A program made the position numbers and the translations under genes. From the NCBI GenBank assembly GCA_030619865.1, contig JAUXAP010000004.1, positions 1 to 56,992 on the forward strand: 56,992 bases of DNA, read 5' to 3'. Origin of the DNA: Dehalococcoidia bacterium (lineage in GTDB: Bacteria > Chloroflexota > Dehalococcoidia > Dehalococcoidales > JAUXAP01). Position 1 is the first letter of the stretch, and each line of letters starts with the position of its first letter. The notes below the pieces were generated by a model. It was not told the DNA's origin, ran no database searches, and saw only the letters and a list, made by a program, of their open reading frames with translations. Below, piece after piece: positions 16,668-48,933 of this stretch.

Positions 16668-17648
16668 CTAATTTGGCAATATCGTCCCGATGAATTGCCT
16701 CTGCCCCCTTAAAAATTCAGCGGCAGACATAGCCCGTTTCCCCTCTGGTTGAACCTTCAAAACCCCTAAAATTCCATCCCCCGTACAGACGCCAAACGCA
16801 GCCCCTGAACACTCTGCGGCTGGAGCCAGAGTTACTACCTACCCTACATCGTAGGTCCTTTCCTCAGGTAAGGGCACTACCTCAATAATCTTAAGTCGCC
16901 TTCCCCTCCACTTGGTGTAACACCCTGGCCAGGGTTGGAAGGCACGCACCCGTCGCCATATCTCTACAGCCGGCAGATGCCAGTCAATCTCGCCTTCCCC
17001 CTTGGAAATCGGGCCACAATAGGTAGCCTCAGCTTCATTCTGAGGTTGGGGGGTGATCTCACCCCTTACCCAGCGAGGTAAAACTTCCAAGAGCAACTGA
17101 GCCGCTATCTGGGACAGCTTGGCGGTAAGGGCACCTGTGGTGTCCTGTGATGAAATGGGAATCTGTTCCTTGGCTAGTATAGGACCGGTATCCAAACCCT
17201 TGTCCATCAGCATAATGCTTACCCCAGTGAACTCATCGCCAGCCAGGATAGCCGCCGCCACCGGTGAGACTCCTCGAAATCTGGGTAGTAGAGAAGGGTG
17301 AATATTAATACACCCGTAACGAGGGATATCTAAAACCGACTGCGGCAAAATTTGGCCAAAGGCAGCCACTACTATAACATCAGGGTGAAAGTCAGCTAAT
17401 TGTGCCACCACCTCTGGCTTCTTAAAACTCACTGACTGCACTACTGGCAATTCCAAAGCTATTGCCGCTTTTTTCAATGGAGGAAAAACCAAGGGGCGTC
17501 CCCTGCCCGCCGGTTTATCAGGTTGAGTATAAACAGCAACCACCTCATACTGATTAAGAACGAGGCGCTCAAGAGAGGGGACAGCAAACTCAGGGGTACC
17601 CATAAAAATAACTCGCACTTTAAGCCTCCTCACACCAAATTCTAACAT
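16668..17648 (-). CDS. fmt: Methionyl-tRNA formyltransferase, interrupted by one in-frame TAG (16839-16841)
   Basis: N-terminal FMGTPEFAVPSLE, catalytic INIHPSLLPRFRG; after the TAG the same frame continues VVTLAPAAECSGAAFGVCTGDGILGVLKVQPEGKRAMSAAEFLRGQRQFIG, then TAG at 16668-16670. Likely true start is GTG at 17618. Confidence 0.9.
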
Positions 17649-46033: not shown

Positions 46034-46621
46034 TCACTGCTCCATTGTGATCAGCACATCATCTATATGGCATGTCTCCTTACTATCTACCAGTGCTGAA
46101 CCATCAAACCTTAACCTGAAGTCAGAATTGAAGTATTGAGAATCAGTTATCTCTTCACTAAAATAGCACCACTCTTTGTCCTGGAAAGTGGGATATTCTA
46201 TCAAATCATACAAGGTATCATATGTGCTGCCATTATAGAGCTGGACAAGTATATCGCCAGTATCCAAACCATCTGGATTGAACCAGAAGGATACGGTAAT
46301 ACTAGTTGCTTCTGATGCATCTAAACTGTCAGAGGTGAGGTAACCGTTAGTGTTCTTTTTGCACTCGGCAGCGTAACTACCGCTATGAGGGTAGGCTTTC
46401 CTACCCCAGTTGGTCGTTCCATTGTCATCCCAGTTACTATCCCATGGGTCGACTTCAAAACCATCATTAAGCAAAGTCACGGTTGCGATTTCCCAGGCGG
46501 TGAAGCGGCTACCAGTCGAAGCCTCACTATCACTGAAATAACCGAAGGTGCTTTTAGTGACCATAACCAGGAGCATGGTAAAAGCTAACAGGAGAAATAA
46601 GATTTTTTTCATTTCTGGCAC
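46034..46621 (-). CDS. SipW-type signal protein with jelly-roll/lectin-like domain
   Basis: MKKILFLLLAFTMLLVMVTKSTFGYFSDSEASTGSRFTAWE (FSDxExSxGN-like), then beta-rich WGRKAYPHSGSYAAEC...ITVSFWFNPDGLDTGDILVQLY. Confidence 0.7.
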   Translation of the reverse strand: MPEMKKILFLLLAFTMLLVMVTKSTFGYFSDSEASTGSRFTAWEIATVTLLNDGFEVDPWDSNWDDNGTTNWGRKAYPHSGSYAAECKKNTNGYLTSDSLDASEATSITVSFWFNPDGLDTGDILVQLYNGSTYDTLYDLIEYPTFQDKEWCYFSEEITDSQYFNSDFRLRFDGSALVDSKETCHIDDVLITMEQ

Positions 46622-46655: not shown

Positions 46656-47198
46656 TTACGGATTGTTAACTGTTTGCTCGGCAATAAAGTTGAAAGTTAC
46701 ATTGGTACTTAGACCCTAGTATTCATTCCCCGTATCAGCCGGCAGGGTAATCCTGATAGCTAGATAATCTTCAGAGCCACCAGCCACAATCCTGTCCCCT
46801 GCTTGTTGCCCTTGAGCTGGGTCACCAATGTGAGCCCCGCTGAGAGAGCCATTATACAAGTCTATGCTATTTTCATAGTCGTAGAGTCGGCACTGCAACT
46901 GATTAGCCAACGTTGTTCCTGAAACCACATCAGTGGTCATGGCGTAGCGAAGTTGCAAAGTGCCATTATTGTTGATGCTTACCCTTGCCTCAACTGTTTC
47001 TCCTGGCGCTATTGAGCTCACATTAAAGGGAAGCGGCACACCACTTTCATTAGTCCAGGACAAATCTAATGTTCCAGCAGCCAGGGTATTCCCAGTTGAG
47101 GTCTCAGTATCTAGAAAGTAAGCCCAGGCGCCGATGACAGACAAGCTGACAATGAGTAAGAAAGCGATAGTCAAGCCAAGTATCTTCTTCATCAGCAC
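46656..47198 (-). CDS. TasA/camelysin-like SipW-dependent secreted protein, interrupted by one in-frame TAG (46716-46718)
   Basis: KKILGLTIAFLLIVSLSVIGAWAYFLDTETSTGNTLAAGTLDLSW; after TAG the frame continues GLSTNVTFNFIAEQTVNNP then TAA at 46656-46658. Confidence 0.75.
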
Positions 47199-47297: not shown

Positions 47298-47918
47298 TTA
47301 GTCGGCGGCTGCTTGTTCCAGGGTAAAGGTTATGTCGAAGCTTACGCTGTCACCCTGAATATCATTCCCGGCCGTAGTTGGAATGCGCCATAAGATGATG
47401 AAGTCATCAGCAGCTGAAGCAATTATTGTCTCTACGGCATCAAAACTGTCGCTGCCGTAGTTGTCTATGGCGGCATAGTCTAAGGCAGTTGGATTATTAT
47501 AGGTAGTACCATCTGACTTAAGACCAATATCTCCGCTGCTCCAATCACCACTCTGGTCCACATCAATGTAGACCGCTATCTCAGCATTAGCTCCAAGCTC
47601 TCCACTACCACCCTCATATTCCGTGCCGCCGGCTCCAGGGGTATTGGTAATAGCTGAAAATGTGACATCCAGTTCCCCATTAAGACTGCCAGCATTAGCC
47701 AGCGTGCTGCTGCCGTTACCGCTGTCACCGGGCGCCTTGTCTGTCACTGAGAATGTGGTAACAGCTGTATTTCCCCCATCGATATTGAGGTCCAGTGTTC
47801 CGGCGGTGAGGCTGTTGTCCGTGCTTGCCTCAGTATCGCTGAAGTAAGCCCAGGTACCACCGCCCACCAATGCCATTACAAGTAATGCTGCTACTGTTAA
47901 ACCGAGTATCTTTTTCAT
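47298..47918 (-). CDS. TasA/camelysin-like SipW-dependent secreted protein
   Basis: MKKILGLTVAALLVMALVGGGTWAYFSDTEASTDNSLTAGTLDLNIDGG; C-term DSVSFDITFTLEQAAAD. Confidence 0.85.
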   Translation of the reverse strand: MKKILGLTVAALLVMALVGGGTWAYFSDTEASTDNSLTAGTLDLNIDGGNTAVTTFSVTDKAPGDSGNGSSTLANAGSLNGELDVTFSAITNTPGAGGTEYEGGSGELGANAEIAVYIDVDQSGDWSSGDIGLKSDGTTYNNPTALDYAAIDNYGSDSFDAVETIIASAADDFIILWRIPTTAGNDIQGDSVSFDITFTLEQAAAD

Positions 47919-48046: not shown

Positions 48047-48649
48047 TCATGCTTTGCCCAGTGCTTCTTTCACTATCTCCTTAGCAAGCAAGGCAACAAG
48101 TAATGTAGCCGGAAGAATAATCGTCAAGAACCAGCCGAGTTTGGTTCGGATGAAATTTAATGCATAACCTACATAAGGAAGCTTCAGCAGGTAAATGCCT
48201 CTAACATCAGATAAGGTAACTGGCCAAGGGTCAGTCTCTTCAAGGGCCTCACCCTTGGTCACCAAGGCGCTACCATCAACTGACACTACTCTATGGGTGA
48301 CCAGCCCCTTCCCGCGCTCGTAGGTTACAATTGCCTCTGGTTTTACCTCGCCGTTAAATGGGCCGTTTATAGGGCCGGTGATTACCATGTCTCCCATATT
48401 GATGGCTGGTTTCATGCTCTCGCTCCTCACCATATATATGTTGTAAGCGGGTGAAAAATGGATAAAGGCAAAAGCGCCAATAATAATAGCGAGCACTATT
48501 GAGGCTATCCAGGTGAGAATGTTCACCCATGAATTTCCATTTGTCCTTTCGGCCACTTTTACCCTGCTTGGCCGGCTTGCTGTTAAGGAGTAGTGGCACC
48601 ATTGACAATCGGTGCCTTGAATTATTTGTTCGCAGTTAGGACACATCAT
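48047..48649 (-). CDS. Signal peptidase I (SipW/ER-type) with N-terminal zinc ribbon
   Basis: MMCPNCEQIIQGTDCQWC zinc ribbon, TM, VRSESMKPAINMGDMVI (Ser), VTHRVVSV (His), C-terminal TMs. Confidence 0.85.
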   Translation of the reverse strand: MMCPNCEQIIQGTDCQWCHYSLTASRPSRVKVAERTNGNSWVNILTWIASIVLAIIIGAFAFIHFSPAYNIYMVRSESMKPAINMGDMVITGPINGPFNGEVKPEAIVTYERGKGLVTHRVVSVDGSALVTKGEALEETDPWPVTLSDVRGIYLLKLPYVGYALNFIRTKLGWFLTIILPATLLVALLAKEIVKEALGKA

Positions 48650-48933
48650 GCTATCACCAAACCAATAAAGTTCCATATACAAGCTATTGAAACCACAACG
48701 GTAACGGTCGTGAGGATTGCTAATTTGCGGTAACGGACTAACAGGAATGTCATGAGTGCTGGAAGAGCTATCTTCCAAACGAGAGACCTCCAGAATCCCA
48801 CCTCGATAACATAAGCCATTATCGGATTAGCCTCTACTCCGCCTTTACTAAGAACGCTCCAGGTAAGTAGAATATCGGTTGCGTTAACGAGTGTGAATAC
48901 CACCGCGAGTATCAGTAGCGTTTTCCGTTTCAT
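48646..48933 (-). CDS. DUF5658-like small membrane protein
   Basis: VVFTLVNATDILLTWSVLSKGGVEANPIMAYVIEVG; overlaps signal peptidase start (ATGA). Confidence 0.7.
   Translation of the reverse strand: MKRKTLLILAVVFTLVNATDILLTWSVLSKGGVEANPIMAYVIEVGFWRSLVWKIALPALMTFLLVRYRKLAILTTVTVVVSIACIWNFIGLVIA

What the first reader, a model, noticed from the sequence alone, without database searches (positions are those of the whole stretch)
46656..47198. Second in-frame TAG: TasA-like protein loses its last beta-strand unless the TAG is read
Seen directly: ...TLPADTGNEY-TAG(46716-46718)-GLSTNVTFNFIAEQTVNNP-TAA. The continuation has the alternating hydrophobic pattern expected of the terminal strand, matching the paralog at 47298-47918 (...GNDIQGDSVSFDITFTLEQAAAD). 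Aligned to the paralog (GNDIQGDS vs GNEY*GLS), the TAG falls on the Gln position, one transition from CAG. With fmt this makes two independent genes with the same type of interruption, both compatible with TAG in place of Gln.
Basis: partly seen in the sequence, partly recalled or inferred. Interest (0 to 1): 0.75.

Follow-up and report, generated by a model that had tools for sequence, protein, structure and literature searches.

The report
One-base nonsense change, not code recoding
A gene for a secreted biofilm-filament-type protein in an uncultured Dehalococcoidales bacterium carries a stop codon where nearly all its relatives have glutamine, but the genome otherwise uses that stop codon normally, so this is an ordinary one-letter mutation or assembly error rather than a changed genetic code.

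Summary
On the minus strand, TAG at 46716-46718 interrupts a SipW-dependent TasA/CalY-like gene, and 19 in-frame codons follow before TAA. The tail is genuine protein sequence. Relatives align straight through it (52% and 46% identity over the full length). Of 37 homologues with a residue at that column, 34 have Gln, 2 Met and 1 Arg. In the read-through model the tail forms the last beta-strand (residues 162-173).

Reading TAG as Gln is not supported. RF1 and RF2 are intact. TAG ends 115 of 385 conserved genes (30%), and no back-up stops follow those TAGs. No CTA-anticodon tRNA or PylS was found in the roughly 58% of the genome assembled. A whole-assembly survey found only four clean internal stops: this one, fmt (TAG, a variable column), mutL (TAG at an invariant Glu) and a response regulator (TAA, Asp/Glu column). 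That is a random nonsense pattern, not a Gln pattern. TAG is expected to make up about 43% of random nonsense changes, and 3 of 4 is unremarkable (P = 0.22).

Most likely it is a recent CAG-to-TAG point change, either real or a consensus error. Reads would decide. Low interest.

The parts
46659..47192 (-). TasA/CalY-like SipW-dependent secreted protein gene, read-through frame of 178 aa (ATG start; TAG at codon 159; TAA follows at 46656-46658)
   Evidence: Pfam PF12389 59.6 bits against cut-off 22.5; TIGR04088 signal-peptide domain 19.3 bits against cut-off 19; homologues aligned over the full length
46716..46718 (-). in-frame TAG at the family's Gln column
   Evidence: column Gln in 34 of 37 homologues
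46659..46715 (-). 19-codon tail GLSTNVTFNFIAEQTVNNP; holds the predicted last beta-strand
   Evidence: Coding-like hexamers; aligned with G119 and G129 tails; AlphaFold2 strand 162-173
47298..47918 (-). intact TasA/CalY-like paralogue with ...GNDIQGDSVSFDITFTLEQ...
46034..46621 (-). third small secreted protein in the cluster, with a related N-terminus (YFSDSEAST) and a lectin-like remainder
   Evidence: weak Laminin_G/MAM similarity below cut-off; related by N-terminal motif only
48047..48778 (-). archaeal/SipW-type signal peptidase I, cluster partner
   Evidence: TIGR02228 65.2 bits against cut-off 51.85
16839..16841 (-). in-frame TAG in fmt (methionyl-tRNA formyltransferase), C-terminal domain
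   Evidence: column variable among relatives

Best explanation
A single-base CAG-to-TAG change in one genome record that uses the standard bacterial code. At the ribosome the codon acts as an ordinary UAG stop, read by RF1. If the base is real, the product is a 158-residue precursor lacking its last beta-strand, which probably folds or assembles poorly. An intact paralogue and a SipW-type peptidase sit beside it. Shown: the stop, the intact tail, the family Gln, and normal use of TAG. Inferred: that the change is recent, because nothing else in the gene is damaged, and that the truncated protein is impaired. Not separable with these data: a real nonsense mutation in the sampled strain (about 0.45) or a consensus or minor-strain base in a draft metagenome bin (about 0.48).
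For: TAG is at a Gln column in 34 of 37 homologues, one transition from CAG. No stop was listed in this family elsewhere in the order. TAG terminates 115 of 385 conserved genes, and the spacing to the next in-frame stop is the same after TAG as after TAA or TGA. RF1 with GGQ and RF2 are intact. No CTA-anticodon tRNA in 28 tRNAs found; no PylS. Only four clean internal stops in about 508 kb of aligned sequence: 3 TAG and 1 TAA, at Q, variable, E and D/E columns, where random nonsense predicts about 43% TAG (P = 0.22). No RNA structure beyond chance after the stop.
Against: Three of four internal stops are TAG, and two lie 30 kb apart on one contig. The genome is only 58% complete, so a suppressor tRNA could be in the missing part. 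All four genes are otherwise undamaged, including fmt and mutL, whose loss should be costly; read-through could explain that, though so could sequence error.
Confidence: 0.93

Rival explanations
1. UAG is partly suppressed: a suppressor tRNA in the missing part of the genome inserts an amino acid, so full-length protein is made alongside the truncated form.
For: Assembly is 58% complete, so a tRNA may be missed; three in-frame TAGs lie in otherwise intact genes.
Against: TAG ends 30% of conserved genes, with no excess of tandem back-up stops. The TAG columns call for different residues (Q, variable, invariant E). E to Q at the MutL ATPase glutamate should inactivate it (established knowledge of GHKL ATPases). 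No CTA tRNA in 28 tRNAs found.
Confidence: 0.03
2. TAG is reassigned to Gln throughout this lineage (like genetic code 15 of some phages).
For: Two of three in-frame TAGs align with Gln in the nearest full relative, G119.
Against: RF1 present; TAG is a common terminator; two genuine Gln-column TAGs against 1826 CAG codons at Gln-aligned positions; mutL TAG is at Glu. All bacterial reassignments listed as known in PMC8629427 involve UGA.
Confidence: 0.003
3. Programmed, signal-driven read-through of this particular TAG makes two protein forms.
For: The tail is intact and coding-like.
Against: No structure beyond chance after the stop (z = 0.25); no relative listed has a stop in this gene, so no conserved recoding site exists.
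Confidence: 0.01
4. The stop is adaptive: the truncated protein, lacking its last strand, works as a donor-strand acceptor or nucleator in a TasA-type filament.
For: TasA fibres assemble by donor-strand exchange and rearrange at both termini (PMC9674648); nearest fold is the TasA fibre 8aur.
Against: The donor strand in TasA is N-terminal. No homologue with an alignable tail ends here. The intact tail implies the stop is recent.
Confidence: 0.02
5. Mutator lineage: a mutL nonsense came first, mismatch repair was lost, and the C-to-T stops in fmt and the TasA-like gene followed. This is a specific form of the real-mutation branch of the best explanation, so its probability lies inside that one.
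For: mutL has a single TAG at its catalytic glutamate and is otherwise intact; both C22 stops fit C-to-T transitions.
Against: The mutL and regulator stops look like G-to-T changes. The overall rate is not clearly above the control genome (4 against 1, P = 0.18). Consensus error explains the same data.
Confidence: 0.1

Closest known systems
Sporadic nonsense mutation or draft-assembly stop in a metagenome bin
   Same: Single one-step stop in an otherwise intact gene, unique to one genome; stops fall at assorted residues and stop types
   Different: Nothing found that differs; raw reads could not be examined
Genetic code 15 (TAG = Gln) in crAss-like phages (PMC9523058)
   Same: TAG at Gln in two genes when compared with the nearest full relative
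   Different: TAG remains a common terminator, RF1 is present, one TAG is at Glu, and the contig is chromosomal (dnaA, gyrA and groEL-like genes)
SipW-dependent TasA/CalY biofilm filament proteins
   Same: PF12389 and SipW-type signal region, adjacent SipW-type peptidase, TasA-like predicted fold
   Different: Far below the TasA equivalog cut-off (30.9 against 450 bits); shorter; filament formation untested

Membership tests
TAG-to-Gln reassigned genetic code | TAG absent or rare as a terminator | tested here: not met
   115 of 385 conserved genes end in TAG; G119 is similar, 150 of 448
TAG-to-Gln reassigned genetic code | RF1 lost or altered | tested here: not met
   356-aa RF1 with GGQ on C16, separate RF2 on C13
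TAG-to-Gln reassigned genetic code | tRNA with CUA anticodon | tested here: inconclusive
   None among 28 tRNAs, but the genome is 58% complete
TAG-to-Gln reassigned genetic code | In-frame TAG at Gln columns across many genes | tested here: not met
   Three genuine in-frame TAGs in the aligned genes: one at a nearly invariant Gln, one at a variable column, one at an invariant Glu
Pyrrolysine (UAG) decoding | PylS present | tested here: inconclusive
   No PylS match, but the genome is incomplete
SipW-dependent TasA/CalY-like proteins | PF12389 match and SipW-type signal domain | tested here: met
   PF12389 59.6 bits against 22.5; TIGR04088 19.3 against 19
SipW-dependent TasA/CalY-like proteins | Cognate archaeal/SipW-type signal peptidase nearby | tested here: met
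   48047-48778, TIGR02228 65.2 against 51.85; below the Bacillus SipW equivalog cut-off
TasA proper (biofilm matrix protein) | NCBIfam equivalog score | tested here: not met
   NF046066 30.9 against 450 bits
TasA-type donor-strand filaments | TasA-like jelly-roll fold | tested here: inconclusive
   Best PDB fold match 8aur TasA fibre, E 1.1e-5, TM 0.43, then 7ueg archaeal bundling pilus; model pLDDT 73
TasA-type donor-strand filaments | Polymerises by donor-strand exchange | not testable with these tools
   Needs biochemistry

The most novel reading that the evidence does not exclude
An amber-suppressing tRNA in the unassembled part of the genome makes UAG dual-purpose (stop and sense) in this Dehalococcoidales lineage, so fmt, mutL and the TasA-like protein are all made full length.
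Probability: 0.03. Interest if true: 0.7.

Novelty: already known. Interest (0 to 1): 0.12.

Why it matters
It settles a tempting recoding claim. In-frame TAGs at Gln positions in two genes look like a new code, but terminator usage, RF1 and the non-Gln stops point to chance nonsense changes. The case shows which checks (RF1, tRNAs, terminator tally, genome-wide stop survey, order-wide comparison) separate recoding from noise in draft bins. If the stops are real, a mutL nonsense would mark a natural mutator, which reads could test.

Tried and rejected
TAG = Gln reassignment was rejected on terminator usage, RF1 and the mutL Glu. Pyrrolysine: no PylS. Programmed read-through: no downstream structure. 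Chance tail: rejected by homology and hexamers. A natural C-terminus at this position: rejected, no homologue with an alignable tail ends there. A first tblastn survey without removal of shadow frames gave thousands of false stops and was replaced. The hexamer survey for other read-through genes returned almost only neighbouring genes in the same frame, with no TAG excess (20 of 65). The first genome-contig scan with the single protein found nothing. A first pattern scan for homologues failed and was corrected. phmmer against PDB found nothing.

Full report
What is there. The window is a chromosomal contig (C22, 56,992 bases) of an 823 kb draft genome in 27 contigs, 58% complete. The nearest full-length relative of the gene (G119) matches, by place and length, GenBank CP070645.1, a Dehalococcoidales metagenome bin. 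On the minus strand, 47192-46656 encodes a small secreted protein with one internal TAG at 46718-46716, followed by GLSTNVTFNFIAEQTVNNP and TAA. It lies between an intact paralogue (47298-47918) and a third small secreted protein (46034-46621), next to an archaeal/SipW-type signal peptidase (48047-48778). The protein matches PF12389 (59.6 bits, cut-off 22.5) and the SipW-dependent signal domain TIGR04088. Its predicted fold is closest to the Bacillus subtilis TasA fibre and an archaeal bundling pilus.

Is the tail real? Yes. Searching 156 genomes of the order, the protein aligns straight through the stop with G119 (52%), G129 (46%) and G066 (37%), none of which has a stop. In an alignment of 40 sequences, 37 homologues have a residue at the TAG column, and 34 of them have Gln, 2 Met and 1 Arg, from Chloroflexota to archaea. 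The tail has coding-like hexamers and forms strand 162-173 in the AlphaFold2 model (mean pLDDT 73).

Is TAG read as an amino acid here? The evidence says no. RF1 and RF2 are both intact. Among 385 conserved genes the terminal stops are TAA 174, TAG 115 and TGA 96. The next in-frame stop is no closer after TAG than after the other stops (within 10 codons 46%, against 49% and 50%), so there is no sign of selection against leaky TAG. No tRNA with a CTA anticodon was found among 28, and no PylS. These two absences are weaker evidence because the assembly is incomplete. The RNA after the stop folds no better than shuffled sequence (z = 0.25).

How many such stops are there? All G119 reading frames of at least 80 codons were compared with the whole assembly and shadow frames were removed. 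I judged 4 of the 35 candidates to be clean stops inside otherwise intact genes. Most of the others lie upstream of start codons or in wrong-frame alignments; a pair of TAAs near the end of contig C6 is unclear. The four are this gene (TAG, Gln), fmt (TAG at 16839-16841), mutL (TAG at C19:50393-50395, in PASVVK-stop-LVENSLDAG) and a response regulator (TAA at C9:9740-9742, Asp/Glu column). In fmt the column is variable: Q12, R7, E4, T3, H, L, G, F in 30 relatives. In mutL it is the invariant catalytic glutamate of GHKL ATPases (for the sequences; the role is from established knowledge). A Gln code would not serve mutL, and TAA is not TAG. Random one-step nonsense in this genome is expected to be TAG about 43% of the time; seeing 3 or more of 4 has P = 0.22. 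Among the matches listed in the order-wide searches, only this genome has a stop inside fmt's C-terminal domain, mutL or this gene. The complete relative G119 has one comparable nonsense stop, apart from TGA codons at likely selenocysteine sites. Four against one, given aligned length, is not a significant excess (P = 0.18).

Interpretation. The simplest account is a single CAG-to-TAG change. Whether the base is real cannot be settled without reads. Four nonsense changes would correspond to about 2 substitutions per 10,000 bases if all were errors, a rate I consider possible for a low-coverage bin (own knowledge). That the affected genes include fmt and mutL, with no other damage, fits errors, minor-strain bases or very recent mutations. 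If it is real, the TasA-like product loses its last strand. In TasA itself the fibre forms by exchange of an N-terminal donor strand, and both termini rearrange (PMC9674648), so a missing C-terminal strand should disturb folding or assembly, but an intact paralogue is present. A mutator lineage starting from the mutL stop is possible but unproven.

Known context. A large screen noted that, in bacteria, known reassignments all involve UGA, and attributed some apparent stop reassignments in its yeast set to in-frame stops in pseudogenes arising by single-base changes from particular codons (PMC8629427). This finding fits that ordinary class. The remaining novel reading, a suppressor tRNA in the missing part of the genome, is unlikely but testable.

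Noticed in passing
G000 C19:50393-50395 (minus strand; locus L077): mutL is intact except for one TAG at the invariant ATPase glutamate (PASVVK*LVENSLDAG); if real, the strain could be a mutator.
   Followed up: partly
G000 C9:9740-9742 (minus strand; locus L013): An OmpR/PhoB-type response regulator has a TAA in its DNA-binding domain at an Asp/Glu column and is otherwise intact.
   Followed up: partly
G119 (CP070645.1) about 283664 and 285053, locus L101: In-frame TGA where this genome has Cys in hydrogenase-related proteins (DGVLVCG*HPGECHY; RICGV*PGAHH): probable selenocysteine in the relative, Cys here.
   Followed up: no
window 46034-46621, minus strand: Third cluster protein joins a SipW-type N-terminus to a lectin-like remainder; a similar gene sits next to the homologue in L027 (2122-3006).
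   Followed up: no
G000 C6:7355-7361 (minus strand; locus L010): Two TAAs in an alanyl-tRNA-synthetase-like C-terminal alignment near a contig end; possibly a misassembly or local frame change.
   Followed up: no
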